From Erythrobacter sp. SD-21 (GTDB lineage Bacteria; Pseudomonadota; Alphaproteobacteria; Sphingomonadales; Sphingomonadaceae): DNA of 64,000 nt. The notes under the pieces are model-generated. The model was not told the DNA's origin, ran no database searches, and worked only from the letters and a program-made list of their open reading frames with translations. Made by a program: the position numbers and the translations under genes. This document shows positions 20,471 through 26,728 of this stretch, one piece after another (positions within the stretch are counted from its first letter, which is position 1; the number at the start of each line of letters is the position of its first letter). The stretch covers positions 186,001 to 250,000 of the forward strand of contig NZ_ABCG01000002.1 in assembly GCF_000181515.1 (NCBI RefSeq), given 5' to 3'.

Positions 20471-22045
20471 TCACTCCCACTCGATGGTACCGGGCGGTTT
20501 CGACGTATAGTCGTAGACCACGCGGTTGATGCCCTTCACCTCGTTGATGATGCGCGTCGCCACGCGGCTGAGGAAGGCGGCGTCGAAGGGATAGATGTCG
20601 GCCGTCATGCCATCGGTGCTGGTCACGGCGCGCAGGCCGCAGACGCTGTCATAGGTCCGCCCGTCGCCCATAACCCCAACGGTCTTGACCGGCAGCAGCA
20701 CGGCGAAGGCTTGCCAGATCGCGTCGTACAGTCCCGCGTTGCGGATCTCCTCGAGATAAATGGCGTCGGCCTTGCGCAGGATGTCGCAGCGCTCCTTGGT
20801 CACTTCGCCCGGGATGCGAATCGCGAGGCCGGGGCCGGGGAAAGGATGGCGACCGACGAAGACTTCGGGCAGGCCAAGTTCGCGGCCCAGGTCGCGCACT
20901 TCGTCCTTGAACAGTTCGCGCAAGGGCTCGACCAGTTCCATGTTCATGCGTTCGGGCAGGCCGCCGACATTGTGGTGGCTCTTGATCGTGACGCTCGGCC
21001 CGCCGGTGAAGCTGACGCTTTCGATCACGTCGGGATAGAGCGTGCCCTGCGCGAGGAAATCCGCGCCGCCGATTTTCTTCGCCTCGGCCTCGAACAGGTC
21101 GATGAAGGCGCCGCCGATGAACTTGCGCTTTTTCTCCGGGTCGGTCTGACCCTCGAGACCGCCGAGGAACATTTCCTCCGCGTTCACATGGACCAGCGGG
21201 ATATTGTAATGGTCGCGGAACAGGGTGACGACCTGCTCGGCCTCGTTCATGCGCATCAGCCCGTGGTCGACGAAGACGCAGGTCAGCTGGTCGCCAATCG
21301 CCTCGTGGATGAGGACTGCGGCAACCGCGCTGTCGACGCCGCCCGACAGGCCGCAGATGACCTTGCCGTCACCCACCTGAGCGCGGATTTCCTCGATCTT
21401 GGTCTTGCGGAATTCGGCCATCGTCCAGTCGCTCGTGAGGCCACAGACATGGCGCACGAAATTGGCGAGCAGCTTGCCGCCGTCGGGCGTGTGGACGACC
21501 TCGGGGTGGAACTGCGTACCGTAATAGCGGCGCTCGTCGTCGGCGATGAGCGCGAAGGGCGCGCCGGGGCTGGTGGCGACGATGCGGAAACCCTCGGCGA
21601 TGCGGGTGACCTTGTCGCCGTGGCTCATCCACACCTGGTGCGTTTCGCCCGGCTTCCAGAGGCCGTCGAACAGCACGCATTTCTCGGTCACTTCGCAGAA
21701 CGCACGGCCGAATTCGCCGCCTTCACCGGTTTCGTGACCGGGACGGACTTCGCCGCCAAGCTGGTCGGTCATCACCTGCTGGCCGTAGCAAATGCCGAGG
21801 ATCGGGACCTTGCTGTCGAAGATCACTTCGGGCGCGCGCGGGCTATCCGCATCGGGCACGCTCGCCGGGCTGCCAGAAAGGATCACGCCCCTGGGTTTCA
21901 GGCGATGGAACGCCTCCTCGGCCTGTGTGAAAGGCGCGATCTCGGAATAGACCCCCGCCTCGCGCACTCGGCGTGCGATCAGCTGGGTAACCTGGCTGCC
22001 GAAATCGACGATGAGGATGGAATCGGGGAGGTGCGCTTGGTCCAT
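20471..22045 (-). CDS. guaA: GMP synthase (glutamine-hydrolysing)
   Basis: A 524-residue enzyme that aminates XMP to GMP with glutamine and ATP. The N-terminal class I amidotransferase has the nucleophile in GICYGQQVM and its His-Glu in [15 protein letters not shown]. The ATP pyrophosphatase domain has S-G-G-V-D-S, and the C-terminal dimerisation domain ends in [15 protein letters not shown] as in other GuaA. Start ATG at 22045 gives the usual short lead before [15 protein letters not shown]; the upstream ATG at 22081 adds an atypical stretch. Confidence 0.96.
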
Positions 22046-22156: not shown

Positions 22157-22672
22157 CTAGCGCACCACCCGGTTGTTCCCGCGATTGGTGATCTTGGGAT
22201 CGTCGACGAAGAATTCCCCTTCGCTTTTGTCCGGCTCCTCCTGTTCGGCGTAAAAAAGGCGTACAGCAATCGCGTATGTGTAGTGTTTCGTGTCGTCGTT
22301 TTTGTCGGTGACCTTCAGTTTGGTGGGGGACAATCGCTCGACGACGAATTGGCCTGTCCCCGGGGCCTTATCCGATAGTTTGGGTTTGCCGTTCCCCTTC
22401 ACGACCCAGAAGTTGTCGTCAGGCTCCTTCCAAAACTCCGCTTTGAAAAGTTTTCCGCCATTCGCGACCCATGGCGACACCCAGTTGTAGATGATCTCCA
22501 CCTCGTCGGTGATCTCAAGACTTTCGAGATTGAGGTTGCCCTTGGTGTCCATAAACTGCTGATCCTCCGGGCAAATCTGCTGGTAGACGAACTTGCCCGT
22601 AAAGTAATTGTGCGGACCCCCGTCTTTCCACTTGGGGTCGTAGCCGAACACATTGACTTCGATCTTCGTCAT
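22157..22672 (-). CDS. Unknown soluble protein paired with the TIR-TPR gene
   Basis: A 171-residue protein with no signal peptide or membrane segment, rich in aromatic and charged residues (KWKDGGPHNYFTGKF, IYNWVSPWVANGGKLF, FWKEPDDNFWVV), probably an all-beta domain. I do not recognise it. GAGGAGAAA sits 6 bases before the ATG, so it is well translated, and 26 bases separate it from the end of the TIR gene; co-transcription is very likely. Its GC content is lower than the surroundings (28 of 60 at 22261-22320 by hand count). It could be a ligand, substrate or regulator of the TIR-TPR protein, but that is inference from position. Confidence 0.75.
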   Translation of the reverse strand: MTKIEVNVFGYDPKWKDGGPHNYFTGKFVYQQICPEDQQFMDTKGNLNLESLEITDEVEIIYNWVSPWVANGGKLFKAEFWKEPDDNFWVVKGNGKPKLSDKAPGTGQFVVERLSPTKLKVTDKNDDTKHYTYAIAVRLFYAEQEEPDKSEGEFFVDDPKITNRGNNRVVR

Positions 22673-22698
22673 CGTTTTCTCCTCGTCGTTATCGGGGT

Positions 22699-24735
22699 TC
22701 AAATTGCGATCCTCCGGTCAAGCAGTGCGTTTATTCCCCGTGATGAAAGCCGCTGTCGCAATTCGCGTGCGAGCGCGGTCTGGCCGAGGCGGTCGGCAGC
22801 CACGGCCCGCAAGGCGATCATGTTTACATTGATACCCTCAGCCTCGTTCTCGAGCGCGATGGCTCTGGCATAGGCGGCGGCGGAAGCGGCGCGATCGCCC
22901 TTGCGGCGAAGGGCTGAACCCTCGACTAGATGCGCGGCGACCAGTTGCCAGGAGGGCGGTTGCCCCGATTGACCGAGCGCGGCGATCCACTTGCGCGCCA
23001 AGGCGAGCTGCGTGTCGATCGGCAGCGAAGCTTCGTCTGTCAGCGAACGCGAGAGCTGAAGCGACGAAAGCCGGTCGACGCTCCATTTGACGTTCTTGGG
23101 GTCCCGTTTGCGCAGGTCCGCAAGCAGGCTTTCCGCGCGATCGAAATCCCGCGTCGCTTCGGCATCGCGGCCCTCGGACCAGTTGAGGATGGCGCGCGTC
23201 GCGAGAGCGGAGATCGCCATCTCGATGCTCCAGGTGTGATCTTCATCCTGTTTCAACAGCCGGTCAGCGAGGCCTGTCGCCGCATCAAGCACCTTGCGAG
23301 CCTCGCGCGGCTCGCCGCTTGCCGCGAGTAGCCAGCCCTGCTGCTGGCGCGCGAACATCAGCGGGCGCGTCGCATCCGCATTGGCCGGATCGCTTTGCAG
23401 GACTTCTTCGTAGAGAGAGATTTCCCGATCGAGTGCGGTAGCGGCCTTGGCAAAATTTCCCATGCGATCATGCGTGTTGGCGATCCACGATATGCCTTCA
23501 CCCCACTCGATCAGACGCGCGGCGGACCGGTCCTCCGCGCGTGCTACGCGCTCCACGATGGCGACGCTTTTCTCGAACAGGGGGAGCGCCTTGCCATAGT
23601 CTCCGTCATCCGAGGCGAGAGTGCCCAGATTCGAGAGCGCGTAGCTTTCCTCCATCTGCCAATCGCGGTTCGACGGATCCATCGCCGCCAGGCGCGTGGA
23701 AATGACTGCATAGCCTTCGAGCGATGTGCGCGCTTCGCCCATATCGCCGCGCTGCCAGGCGATATACCCGACCCAATAAAGGCTCTGGCCATGCGCAAAC
23801 AACGCATCGGTATCGTCAGGATCGCGCTCCACGAGCTCTGCAGTCGTTCGGGCCACTTGCTGGAAGGCGGGCAGCGCTTTCTCGTTGTCCCCACGTAGGT
23901 TGTGCATCTCCGCGACAAGCTGCACCGCCCGGGCGCGGCGGGCCAGTTCCTCGGCGGTGAGATCGGCGACCTCCTGCGAGGCGTAATATTCCATCGCGCG
24001 CGCACCCACTCCGTCGAGGAGGTCGAGCCGGCCGACCGGCTCGAGTTCCTCCCGCAGGTCGGTCAGCATATATTCGATCAGCCCGTTGGCTTCGGCCCGC
24101 TCGGCCCGGGCGGTATCGCGTTGGTTGGTGGCGTATAGCGCCAGACCGAGCGCGAGGAGCATGCCGACGAACGATATTCCCGCCACCATTACCATGTGGC
24201 GATTGCGCTGGCGGGCCTGCCGATCGACCAGGTCATCGAGCGGGATTCCCGTGAGCCCTGCAACCAACTTCTGGACACCGAGCTTGCGGCCGTCGGCCTC
24301 GGGCCTCAGGTCGGCGGCGATCGGTTCGGCCAGCTGGTCGGTCGGGGTGCCGTCCTCGTAATGGACCAGCAGCGGAGGAGGCATGTTGTAAGGGGCCTCC
24401 CCGTCGATCACGGCCGGGAAGACCCGCGCATCGCCGTTGACCCGCTTGAACAGGTCGATCTCGCGCGCGATCCAGGGGGATATGGCCGCGTGCGGCGAGC
24501 ACAGGACGATGAGGGCGTCGCTGTTCGTTATGGCGCTTTCCAGCGCGGCGCCGAGATCTTCGGAGGCAGGCAGTTCTTCGCGATCCTTGAAGATGGGTCG
24601 CAAGCCATCCTGAAGGCCGGGCGCTTCTATTCCGTCGGGGATCTTGAAGCGTTCCAGCTGCCCATGCAGCCAGTTCGCCACCCGCCTGTCGCGGTGCGAG
24701 TAGCTGATGAATGCCTTGTAGCGTCCTTTCGCCAA
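22699..24735 (-). CDS. TIR-transmembrane-TPR protein
   Basis: A 678-residue protein in three parts. Residues 1-110 are a TIR domain (PF13676 type): Y-K-A-F-I-S-Y-S-H-R-D at the start, and S-P-W-I-A-R-E-I with Glu92, the position that is catalytic in NAD-cleaving TIR domains. One membrane helix lies near 181-203 (MVAGISFVGMLLALGLAL). The rest, about 460 residues, is a long array of TPR-like helical pairs predicted outside. The start is a TTG at 24735, chosen because GGAGGAGC lies 3-10 bases before it and no ATG opens the frame. Such receptors may signal or deplete NAD in response to an external or periplasmic cue; this one's role is unknown. It heads a two-gene unit. Confidence 0.85.
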   Translation of the reverse strand: MAKGRYKAFISYSHRDRRVANWLHGQLERFKIPDGIEAPGLQDGLRPIFKDREELPASEDLGAALESAITNSDALIVLCSPHAAISPWIAREIDLFKRVNGDARVFPAVIDGEAPYNMPPPLLVHYEDGTPTDQLAEPIAADLRPEADGRKLGVQKLVAGLTGIPLDDLVDRQARQRNRHMVMVAGISFVGMLLALGLALYATNQRDTARAERAEANGLIEYMLTDLREELEPVGRLDLLDGVGARAMEYYASQEVADLTAEELARRARAVQLVAEMHNLRGDNEKALPAFQQVARTTAELVERDPDDTDALFAHGQSLYWVGYIAWQRGDMGEARTSLEGYAVISTRLAAMDPSNRDWQMEESYALSNLGTLASDDGDYGKALPLFEKSVAIVERVARAEDRSAARLIEWGEGISWIANTHDRMGNFAKAATALDREISLYEEVLQSDPANADATRPLMFARQQQGWLLAASGEPREARKVLDAATGLADRLLKQDEDHTWSIEMAISALATRAILNWSEGRDAEATRDFDRAESLLADLRKRDPKNVKWSVDRLSSLQLSRSLTDEASLPIDTQLALARKWIAALGQSGQPPSWQLVAAHLVEGSALRRKGDRAASAAAYARAIALENEAEGINVNMIALRAVAADRLGQTALARELRQRLSSRGINALLDRRIAI

Positions 24736-25180
24736 GCTGCTCCTCCGGAAGCGACCCCGGATACGACTCGGCAACCCACTGTTTTGCCGGAAGGATGTCG
24801 TAATCTTGCATTCAATGCAAACATGAGAGGCCAGGGCCCACGGACGCGGGCGGCGGATCGCCCTTGCGCAAAACGCAACATACCCTGACCTTTTCTCACT
24901 TTTGTTCGCGTGTCGGCAACATTATTTCGCGCCTCACACCCGGCCACGGACGTCCCTCCCAAGCAGTCCCGGCCGGTCCAGAGATGGCGGCAGTCCCTTC
25001 CCCAAGAGAAGCTGTCGTCGCCTTCCTCTCGGCCAGCGAGCCGGTTCGAAAGACCCTTGCGACTCCTAGCGCAAGTGCCGCTTTCCCGAGAGGCGATATG
25101 GCAGCGAGTAGAGACGCGGCCGCCCACACACTCCTCTCCCCCTCCCCCCGTGTCGGCGCCGCGTCTCGAACGCGCTGCGC
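24736..25180. other. Intergenic, no confident gene
   Basis: About 445 bases between the acyl-CoA synthetase 3' end and the TIR gene. Short frames exist on both strands (for example 25129 to 24896 leftward and 24864 to 25184 rightward), but composition and lack of ribosome-binding sites argue against them. A purine-rich leftward tract at 25135-25155 is notable. It should contain the promoter of the TIR operon. Confidence 0.45.
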
Positions 25181-26728
25181 CTAGTCCGGCAGGCCCCGGC
25201 GTTCCGCTTCTGCGCGCAGCTCCGTCTTGAGCAGTTTGCCGATATGGCTGCGGGGCATCTCGTCGATCGCATGCAGCTGCGCGAGCCGCTGGGTCTTGCC
25301 GAGCCGCGCGTTCACCGACTCCCGCACTGCTTCCGCTTCGCGCGCGTCTTCGGCGAGCCGGACAAAGCCGACGGGCGTCTCGCCCCATCGGCGCGACGGC
25401 ACGCCGATTACCGCCGCTTCGAGGACGGTATCATCCTCGAGCAGCGCATTCTCAAGGTCGACGGGATAGATGTTGAACCCGCCCGAAATGATCATGTCCT
25501 TGGCGCGGCCGACGAGTTCGACGAAGCCTTGCGCATCGACGCGGCCGATATCGCCCATCCGCTGCCAGACCTCGCCCGTTTCGGGGTCGGTCCAGTAGCC
25601 TTCCTGCGTCTGCTCGGGCCGGTTCTTGTAGCCGCTCATCATGGTCTGGCTGCGGCCGACGAGGTTACCCGGCGTGCCGGGAGCGACCTCGCGATCCTGG
25701 TCGTCGAGCACTTTCAGCTCGCTGCCCGGCGCAGGCCGGCCGACGGTGTGGAGCTTGTCGGGAAACTTGTGCGCTTCGAGCAGGCAGACGACCCCGCCCT
25801 CGGTCATCGAATAGATTTCGATCAGCGCGCCCGGCATGCGCTCCAGCACCTCGCGCTTGAGTTGGGGCGAGAATGGCGCGGAAGTGCAGTATTTGAGCTG
25901 GAGCGACGAAAGGTCGAAATCGCCAAATCGCGGCTCATCCATCATGCGCTGGTATTGCACCGGGACCAGCATCGTGATCGTGGTGCGATCGGCCTCTGCA
26001 TGGGCGAGCCACCGCTCGGTTGCGAACTTGCCCATGACCCGGACGGTTCCCCCCGCTAGCAGCGCGGGCAGGAAGGCGACCATGGTGGTGTTCGAATAGA
26101 GCGGCGTCGTAGCCAGGCTGCGCACATCGAAGCCGTTCTCCAGCCAGCTTGCCGCCGTCGCCGCGAACTGCCGCCAGCGCATCTGATGCGAGTGGACGAT
26201 CCCCTTGGGGGTGCCCGTGGTGCCGCTTGAATAGATGATGTTGAACGGGTCCGAGGACTGGTGGTCGACCGGCGGGGCAACGGTGCCTTCGGGCGCCATC
26301 CACTCGTCCAACTCCTCGTCGAGCACGATGCATCGCATCCTGCGGGAGAACATGCTCCCCAACTCGCTCATCTTCGCGCGGTCGATGAAGATGTGGGTCG
26401 CGCCCGAATCGCTCGCCATGCCTTCGAGCTGCTCCGCGCTGGCGCTGGTGGTGAGCGGCGCCGCGACGCCGCCCGCCCGTACGGCAGCGAGGAAAACGAG
26501 CGCGTAGTTCACACTCGAAAGCCCGAGGATGGCGACCGACTGGCCGCGCTGCAGCCCCTCCTCGAGGAGCCTCGCCGCGATGCGCTCGACCCGGTCGCCA
26601 AGCTCTGCCCAGCTGAGGTCGCCCTTTTCGTCCTTCAGCGCGACCGTGTCGCCCAGCGCCTGCGCATTGGCGGAAATGATGTCGCTGAAATTGCCGAAGG
26701 GCTCGGCCAGTGGCTGATTCTCTCCCAT
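25181..26728 (-). CDS. Acyl-CoA synthetase / AMP-dependent ligase
   Basis: A 515-residue member of the adenylate-forming family (AMP-binding PF00501 plus C-terminal PF13193). The P-loop is Y-S-S-G-T-T-G-T-P-K-G, the aromatic A5 region is IYSMTEGG, the ribose-binding Asp is in MGDIGRVDAQGFV, and the C-terminal hinge and catalytic lysine region (G-R-A-K-D-M-I-I-S-G-G, then SHIGKLLK) is complete. It should activate a carboxylate, probably a fatty or aryl acid, as a CoA thioester via acyl-AMP. It follows sdaA by 35 bases, but no functional tie is evident. Confidence 0.88.
   Translation of the reverse strand: MGENQPLAEPFGNFSDIISANAQALGDTVALKDEKGDLSWAELGDRVERIAARLLEEGLQRGQSVAILGLSSVNYALVFLAAVRAGGVAAPLTTSASAEQLEGMASDSGATHIFIDRAKMSELGSMFSRRMRCIVLDEELDEWMAPEGTVAPPVDHQSSDPFNIIYSSGTTGTPKGIVHSHQMRWRQFAATAASWLENGFDVRSLATTPLYSNTTMVAFLPALLAGGTVRVMGKFATERWLAHAEADRTTITMLVPVQYQRMMDEPRFGDFDLSSLQLKYCTSAPFSPQLKREVLERMPGALIEIYSMTEGGVVCLLEAHKFPDKLHTVGRPAPGSELKVLDDQDREVAPGTPGNLVGRSQTMMSGYKNRPEQTQEGYWTDPETGEVWQRMGDIGRVDAQGFVELVGRAKDMIISGGFNIYPVDLENALLEDDTVLEAAVIGVPSRRWGETPVGFVRLAEDAREAEAVRESVNARLGKTQRLAQLHAIDEMPRSHIGKLLKTELRAEAERRGLPD

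What the first reader, a model, noticed from the sequence alone, without database searches (positions are those of the whole stretch)
22157..24735. TIR-transmembrane-TPR receptor with an unknown co-transcribed partner
The TIR domain keeps the Glu position used for NAD cleavage, joined by one helix to about 460 residues of TPR-like repeats, from a TTG start with strong ribosome-binding site. A beta-rich unknown protein of lower GC follows after 26 bases. Similar TIR-TPR architectures take part in immune or stress signalling in bacteria; this pairing looks undescribed to me and is the best candidate for a new system here.
Basis: partly seen in the sequence, partly recalled or inferred. Interest (0 to 1): 0.62.

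Follow-up and report, generated by a model that had tools for sequence, protein, structure and literature searches.

The report
Membrane TIR receptor with fast-evolving partner
Two neighbouring bacterial genes, a membrane protein with an immune-type TIR enzyme domain and a small fast-evolving beta-sandwich protein, turn out to travel together in many bacteria and probably form one signalling or defence unit whose trigger is unknown.

Summary
On the minus strand, 22699-24735 encodes a 678-residue TIR / transmembrane / TPR protein, and 22157-22672 a 171-residue beta-rich protein 26 bases downstream. The pairing is real and wide. All 13 same-genus (Qipengyuania) homologues examined at the guaA locus have the small gene beside them. 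Of 80 named loci picked by TIR-TPR similarity, I judge 74 to have a counterpart beside the TIR gene. The counterparts share little beyond a near-invariant Asp-Pro close to the C-terminus. In 17 genus genomes without a TIR match, neither gene was found beside guaA. The modelled partner is a beta-sandwich whose nearest solved structures are SO1698 (DP-EP), PixA and MakC/MakD, at modest scores. Its divergence tracks the TPR domain more than the TIR domain. Elsewhere a third gene lies nearby: a TPR-S/cyclase protein (37 of 80) or another protein I label SLOG-like (8 of 80); here none. Most likely this is a TIR signalling module whose TPR domain reads, or is restrained by, its rapidly evolving partner. 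NADase activity, trigger and anti-phage function are untested. It is probably a variant of TIR conflict systems already predicted in print, since some counterparts match Pfam pNTSase1; the fold argues against that name for this partner.

The parts
22699..24735 (-). TIR-TM-TPR protein, 678 aa, TTG start
24250..24714 (-). TIR domain, about residues 8-162
   Evidence: Pfam TIR_2 E 2.5e-15 over residues 9-115; model elements
24460..24462 (-). Glu92 codon, putative catalytic residue of the S-x-W-x-x-x-E stretch
   Evidence: E in 81 of 81 aligned homologues; catalytic role recalled
24124..24192 (-). single transmembrane segment, about residues 182-204
   Evidence: hydropathy 2.43, one segment; more Lys/Arg before than after it in 70 of 80 proteins, fewer in 1, equal in the rest
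22705..24027 (-). TPR-type alpha solenoid, residues 237-677, predicted outside the cytoplasm
22157..22672 (-). partner, 171 aa beta-sandwich, ATG start, 26 bases after the TIR stop
22196..22201 (-). Asp158-Pro159 of the partner, by alignment of related partners at the D116-P117 place of SO1698
   Evidence: invariant in the 13 rows of alignment A1; profile A7 against SO1698
24740..24746 (-). GGAGGAG ribosome-binding site of the TIR gene
22679..22684 (-). GAGGAG ribosome-binding site of the partner
20471..22045 (-). guaA (GMP synthase; named by reading the sequence, no family scan), downstream flank, not part of the module
25181..26728 (-). acyl-CoA synthetase-like AMP ligase (named by reading the sequence, no family scan), upstream flank, not part of the module

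Best explanation
A two-gene membrane signalling module. SHOWN by computation: the TIR-TM-TPR gene and the small Asp-Pro gene are a conserved pair; the TIR keeps its Glu in every homologue aligned; the window partner is modelled as a beta-sandwich nearest to DP-EP/PixA proteins; partner divergence follows that of the TPR domain. INFERRED: the TPR solenoid is the sensor and the partner is its cognate, acting as ligand, plug or bait. Binding or loss of the partner when a trigger (phage infection or envelope stress) appears lets the TIR domains cluster and cleave NAD+. In many relatives the product is passed to a nearby TPR-S cyclase or another effector. Here neither is linked, so the output would be NAD+ loss itself or a signal to an unlinked receptor.
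For: 13 of 13 genus homologues fetched at the guaA locus carry the small gene. In 80 named loci given by a scan with the TIR-TPR alignment, 71 have a downstream small ORF matching a loose DP motif, against 37 of 320 other small genes in the same loci. Strict motif beside the TIR gene on either side: 58 of 80 against 7 of 320, Fisher p 2.6e-43. Read by eye, 74 of 80 have a counterpart: 72 downstream, 2 upstream. In 17 genus genomes without a TIR match neither gene matches in the flanks of guaA; in 14 of them the AMP ligase lies beside guaA. Partner against TPR distance r 0.79, partial r given TIR 0.69, 0 of 2000 permutations as high; partial r with TIR given TPR 0.24. Glu92 81 of 81. Third genes.
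Against: No experiment exists. Charge counts put the TPR domain outside the cytoplasm, yet the window partner and most of 78 counterparts lack an export signal (7 look exported, 5 of these with a lipobox), so the meeting place is unclear. The pair sits between housekeeping-type genes, not in a defence island; PADLOC gives only a SAVED-TIR model at E 5.5e-6. Partner and TPR are adjacent in the DNA, so linked inheritance could inflate the correlation. 6 of 80 loci lack a clear counterpart. The 80 loci include near-duplicates and overlap the genus set, and 467 more distant relatives were not seen.
Confidence: 0.5

Rival explanations
1. Toxin-antitoxin-like pair: the TIR protein is a constitutively dangerous NADase and the partner is a neutraliser that must be present.
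For: Small gene directly downstream, with the TIR gene in 13 of 13 genus loci and found in none of 17 genus genomes without it.
Against: Partner divergence follows the TPR rather than the TIR; some loci carry two counterparts in a row (L062, L072, L133) and a few look exported. Antitoxin action through the TPR is not excluded.
Confidence: 0.2
2. The partner is an enzyme, the 'predicted novel nucleotide synthetase' (pNTSase1) of Pfam, making a signal nucleotide for the TIR protein or the cyclase.
For: PF20301 matches 11 of 69 counterparts at E 0.05 or better, best 1.5e-12; of those I scanned one by one, 7 are over its cut-off.
Against: The window partner does not match it. Only M1, V8, Y133, D158 and P159 are invariant in alignment A1, little for a shared nucleotide site. 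The modelled fold is nearest to DP-EP/PixA. But no PF20301-type counterpart was modelled, and their profile meets the window set only over 33 C-terminal columns at 34.9%.
Confidence: 0.1
3. Stress or envelope signalling rather than immunity: the module reports on periplasmic conditions and adjusts NAD+ or cyclic nucleotide levels.
For: Same chromosomal site in the genus; no phage record and only partial, divergent matches in 15 plasmid records; cyclase neighbours in other families and genera.
Against: Patchy presence within the genus (a TIR match in 16 of the 36 other genomes) and very fast partner evolution (mean distance 0.70 against 0.28 for TIR) look like conflict.
Confidence: 0.25

Closest known systems
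TIR / TPR-S / cyclase and pNTSase1 systems (Burroughs and Aravind 2020; recalled, paper not held)
   Same: Relatives have a nearby protein matching PF20308 TPR-S (5 of 5 scanned) and Guanylate_cyc (4 of 5); 11 of 69 counterparts match PF20301.
   Different: No such third gene beside the window pair, no TPR-S match in the own genome, and the window partner does not match PF20301.
SO1698 / DP-EP (PF08985, DUF1888), Shewanella
   Same: First by VIA: Z 10.3, 117 residues, 3.2 A. A profile of 12 counterparts (A7) has SO1698 mutant chains as its best two PDB matches, E 0.0072 and 0.017, with Asp-Pro aligned.
   Different: The window set's own profile A1 and the Caulobacter-type profile A6 do not find it. 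Pfam DP-EP: 1 of 13 members of A1 at E 0.02, the best of them, and none of 69 at E 0.05. Of D37, S114, D116 and P117 only D116 and P117 are kept; the D37 place reads Asn46, the S114 place Val156 (inferred).
PixA (PF12306) and MakC/MakD
   Same: Fold: 4lzk Foldseek E 1.7e-5 (TM only 0.36) and VIA Z 8.7; 8rqy Z 8.3; 6tct Z 8.2.
   Different: No PixA match by sequence, none in the own genome; gene context differs.
Thoeris (ThsB TIR with ThsA)
   Same: TIR domain with the Glu; PF08937 ThsB_TIR E 8.8e-8, over its cut-off.
   Different: Here the TIR is fused to TM and TPR, no ThsA gene lies beside it, and there is a DP partner. ThsA composition recalled.

Membership tests
TIR domain NADase | TIR fold/profile | tested here: met
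   PF13676 E 2.5e-15, over the curated cut-off
TIR domain NADase | catalytic Glu | tested here: met
   E92 in 81 of 81; that this position is catalytic is recalled
TIR domain NADase | NAD+ cleavage | not testable with these tools
   needs an assay
DP-EP (PF08985) | Pfam match over the cut-off | tested here: not met
   no match for the window partner; no match in the own genome, though that search rang nowhere, controls included
DP-EP (PF08985) | beta-sandwich fold with C-terminal Asp-Pro | tested here: met
   scores are modest
DP-EP (PF08985) | residues D37, S114, D116, P117 of SO1698 (mutants of these keep residues after 116 in the solved chains, my inference) | tested here: not met
   D116 and P117 kept; D37 place N46, S114 place V156 (alignment indirect)
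pNTSase1 (PF20301) | Pfam match | tested here: not met
   window partner no match; 11 of 69 counterparts match
TPR-S / cyclase conflict system | linked TPR-S protein | tested here: not met
   no such gene beside it; no TPR-S match in the own genome at E 0.001
Thoeris | ThsA gene beside the TIR gene | tested here: not met
   neighbours are the partner, guaA and the AMP ligase
PixA (PF12306) | Pfam match | tested here: not met

The most novel reading that the evidence does not exclude
A bacterial counterpart of a Toll-type receptor with a processed protein ligand: the partner is cut at its invariant Asp-Pro, as SO1698 cuts itself, and the freed C-terminal peptide (or the altered sandwich) is read by the TPR solenoid of a membrane TIR receptor, with ligand and sensor diversifying together.
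Probability: 0.1. Interest if true: 0.9.

Novelty: new variant of a known kind. Interest (0 to 1): 0.6.

Why it matters
It turns an unknown neighbour into a general, testable unit: a membrane TIR protein whose fast-evolving partner is nearest in fold to families of little known function (DP-EP, PixA, MakC/D). It suggests a role for that fold as the cognate of a sensor domain, casts some doubt on the 'nucleotide synthetase' label of related counterparts, and offers a minimal two-gene version for the bench.

Tried and rejected
Partner is rare: a single-sequence search matched 2 of 298 family genomes and a profile 2 of 289 class genomes, the own genome counted in both. Rejected, because gene calling beside TIR genes showed fast divergence instead.

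Self-cleavage of the partner as the main reading: kept only as the novel case, because two of the four SO1698 residues that seem to matter are not kept.

Sequence link to SO1698: profile A5 found it at E 0.094, behind chance antibody matches. A7 was then put together from A5 members and a few other short counterparts and gave E 0.0072, so A7 is a chosen subset. A1 and A6 did not find it. Only mutant chains that hold the C-terminal tail are listed (E 0.0072 to 0.4).

Selection: the 9 proteins of A2, used for the scan, came from loci in most of which I had already seen a DP gene; the scan patterns themselves lie in the TIR domain only.

Mirror-tree caveat: 14 taxa, p-distances, some rows nearly alike (L034-L036, L031/L033), three TIR rows cut short at the N-terminus.

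Empty-site caveat: the two DP-like ORFs found by the loose motif in the 14 gaps (81 aa in L147, 188 aa in L149) do not look like partners by eye; tblastn at E 0.1 can miss a very divergent one.

Not helpful: PADLOC, phages (none), DP-EP in 274 genomes of the class of G838, which I took for Gammaproteobacteria (nothing rang, controls included, so uninformative), PDB search of the single partner (cadherins at E 0.19 and worse). In the fold search of the whole TIR-TPR model the 50 rows shown are TPR and other helical-repeat proteins or their complexes. Papers: searches showed me no paper joining a TIR-TPR protein with a PixA, DP-EP or pNTSase partner; I saw listings, plus passages of PMC8195603, PMC11484084, PMC11655445, PMC9503650 and PMC7159879. 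The library lacks most subscription papers.

Loci without a clear counterpart: L066 (contig ends 460 bases on), L076, L097 (Glu-Pro instead), L100, L122 (doubtful upstream ORF), L129 (C-terminal membrane segment). Rows dropped: A3 holds 69 proteins: the window, 64 of the 79 refs (15 near-duplicates left out by eye; L097, L100, L122 and L129 kept in), and 4 loci. The gene caller found no TIR gene in 3 of 80 loci (L088, L089, L109); these were recovered. L088 counts as 'none' for a third gene, though one search shows a cyclase-type frame there. 'SLOG' is my own label for a group found by similarity; no SLOG family matched. DUF4231 is over its cut-off in 2 of 4 scanned, SLATT_3 below its cut-off in those 2.

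Full report
WHAT IS THERE. The two genes are as described. The TIR-TM-TPR gene (22699-24735, minus) starts at a TTG behind GGAGGAG; the partner (22157-22672, minus) starts at an ATG behind GAGGAG, 26 bases further on. The TIR domain scores E 2.5e-15 to Pfam TIR_2. A model from 9 homologues (mean pLDDT 81.4, pTM 0.63) shows TIR elements to residue 162, a long helix 166-231 that holds the hydrophobic segment and is of low confidence at 178-207, and a helical solenoid from 237 to 677. Lys/Arg before the membrane segment exceed those after it in 70 of 80 proteins and are fewer in 1, so the TPR part is predicted outside the cytoplasm; 15 of the 80 show more than one hydrophobic segment by the same crude count.

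THE PAIR IS CONSERVED. A plain sequence search made the partner look rare: 2 of 298 genomes of the family, the own one included. That was misleading. The TIR-TPR protein has a match in 22 of 61 genomes, among them 16 of the 36 other genomes of the genus. I fetched the surroundings of the 13 genus homologues with long matches at this site. The AMP ligase lies on one side; guaA lies on the other in 12, and in L026 the contig ends there. The three other genus genomes with a match (G306, G312, G319) have theirs elsewhere. All 13 have a small lower-GC ORF directly after the TIR gene. These align with the window partner (A1: window plus 12, the near-duplicate L036 left out; 18-49% identity to the window; invariant M1, V8, Y133, D158, P159). 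The genus is Qipengyuania by record titles of the same contigs.

A wider set came from a genome scan with the TIR-TPR alignment A2: 547 relatives, of which the best 80 were returned; 467 more distant ones were not seen. By title they are mainly Alpha- and Gammaproteobacteria. They include 9 Qipengyuania/Erythrobacter loci that overlap the set above, and several near-duplicates. Small ORFs next to the TIR gene were tested for a DP motif near the C-terminus. With a loose motif 71 of 80 loci have one downstream, against 37 of 320 small genes elsewhere in the same loci. With a strict motif it is 58 of 80 beside the TIR gene against 7 of 320; at least two of the 7 (in L058 and L103) look like further partner copies. 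By eye I count 74 of 80: 72 downstream, including L059 whose motif lies further from its end, and 2 upstream (L105, L112). This last count is a judgement.

GAIN AND LOSS TOGETHER. Of 20 genus genomes with no TIR match, 17 were examined at guaA (G310, G321 and G325 were not). The AMP ligase lies within 1.5 kb of guaA in 14 of 17, with gaps of 333 to 977 bases. No TIR match (tblastn E 1e-5) and no partner match (E 0.1) was found in any of the 17 loci. For the other 3 the flank holds other genes and says little. The pair behaves as one unit at this site, though shared descent makes the counts non-independent.

WHAT THE PARTNER IS. The model of the partner (13 sequences, mean pLDDT 86.8, pTM 0.85) is nearly all beta. 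Foldseek puts PixA first (4lzk, E 1.7e-5) with SO1698 mutants close behind, at TM-scores of only 0.36-0.49 to the query. VIA ranks SO1698 first (Z 10.3, 117 residues, 3.2 A), then PixA (8.7), MakC/MakD (8.3, 8.2), with unrelated Ig-like rows at 6.8 and below. By the tool's own note a best Z of 7-8 is common for models without a clear match, so sequence support matters, and it is mixed. A profile of 12 chosen counterparts (A7, 11 of them from outside Qipengyuania) has two SO1698 mutant chains as the best of 177,635 PDB sequences, E 0.0072 and 0.017, with the C-terminal DP aligned. A larger group (A5) has them at E 0.094 and 0.13 behind chance matches, and the window set A1 and the Caulobacter-type set A6 do not find them. 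The window set and A5 match each other with 99.2% probability; A1 to A6 60.9%, A5 to A6 67.2%, A4 to A6 89.4%, and A1 to the PF20301-type set A4 34.9% over 33 C-terminal columns. One superfamily is well supported for part of the counterparts and likely, not proven, for all.

SO1698. A held paper uses and cites Osipiuk et al. [quoted passage not shown] the original was not held, and the cut between D116 and P117 is my recall. The solved chains agree: wild type, Y26F, K98A, P115A and Q118A end at 116, while D37A, S114A, D116A and P117A run to 123-124 (my inference from chain ranges). The window partner keeps the DP pair but has Asn46 at the D37 place and Val156 at the S114 place (inferred). Self-cleavage is therefore open and not expected by simple transfer. 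The MakC/MakD paper (PMC11484084, passages) reports beta-sandwich proteins that are not secreted, with PixA-type neighbours of no described function.

EVOLUTION. Identity to the window falls from TIR domain (0.88 with L026) to TPR (0.73) to partner (0.51); with L028 it is 0.88, 0.54 and 0.29. Over 14 genus members partner distance correlates with TPR distance at 0.79 (partial 0.69 given TIR, 0 of 2000 permutations as high) and less with TIR (partial 0.24). This suggests that partner and TPR fit each other. Linkage or local recombination could add to it.

THE LARGER SYSTEM. In 37 of 80 loci a TPR-S/cyclase-type protein lies within 4.5 kb, in 8 a protein of the group I label SLOG-like (in some on the other strand or upstream), in 28 neither, and in 7 the contig is too short. 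Pfam gives TPR-S in 5 of 5 proteins of the first kind that were scanned and Guanylate_cyc in 4 of 5. Of 4 scanned of the second kind, 2 match DUF4231 over its cut-off and SLATT_3 below it, and 2 have no match worth naming. A held review states that SLATT domains are predicted ADPr-derivative-regulated membrane effectors (PMC9503650, passages). The window genome has no TPR-S match and one partial match to a SLOG-like protein elsewhere, E 1.3e-7. In the 12 genus loci where the next gene can be seen, no third gene of these kinds stands between the partner and guaA.

MECHANISM AND DOUBT. I favour a membrane receptor whose TPR solenoid recognises its partner and whose TIR domain then acts on NAD+. 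The main tension is place: TPR predicted outside, partner without export signal here, although 7 of 78 counterparts look exported (L086, L099, L108, L113, L120, L121, L126; 5 with a lipobox, which also lists L133, discounted, and L129 for its C-terminal segment). L107 has a lipobox-like start seen. Defence is plausible from patchiness and fast evolution but nothing here shows it.

KNOWN OR NEW. Family names (PF20301, PF20308) show that parts of such systems were recognised before; I recall Burroughs and Aravind 2020 as the source but could not read it. What my searches did not show in print is the general pairing of TIR-TM-TPR with a diversifying DP beta-sandwich, its fold kinship with SO1698/PixA, and the two-gene form.

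Noticed in passing
L058:6001-11237: Qipengyuania vesicularis carries two TIR-TPR plus partner pairs in tandem before guaA, with partners of 184 and 111 aa.
   Followed up: no
L062, L072, L133: Two different DP counterparts in a row after one TIR-TPR gene.
   Followed up: no
L086, L108, L113, L120, L121: Counterparts with lipoprotein-like N-termini, unlike the window partner; suggests periplasmic action in some lineages.
   Followed up: partly
L051, L052 (same genus): Another TIR protein near a protein of my SLOG-like group, with no DP partner called beside it; it matches the window TIR protein only over its first 224 residues.
   Followed up: partly
G000:C17:206930-207274 and G000:C19:62297-62554: Two further TIR proteins in the same genome (542 and 653 aa as called), neither with a DP gene called beside it.
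   Followed up: partly
G000:C19:72342-72728: A 772-residue open frame similar to residues 27-171 of a SLOG-like protein, about 10 kb from a TIR gene.
   Followed up: no
L140 (G014): The only PF20301 match in 249 genomes drawn from the phylum lies right after a TIR-TPR homologue (36% identity over residues 5-453) and before a 491 aa protein.
   Followed up: yes
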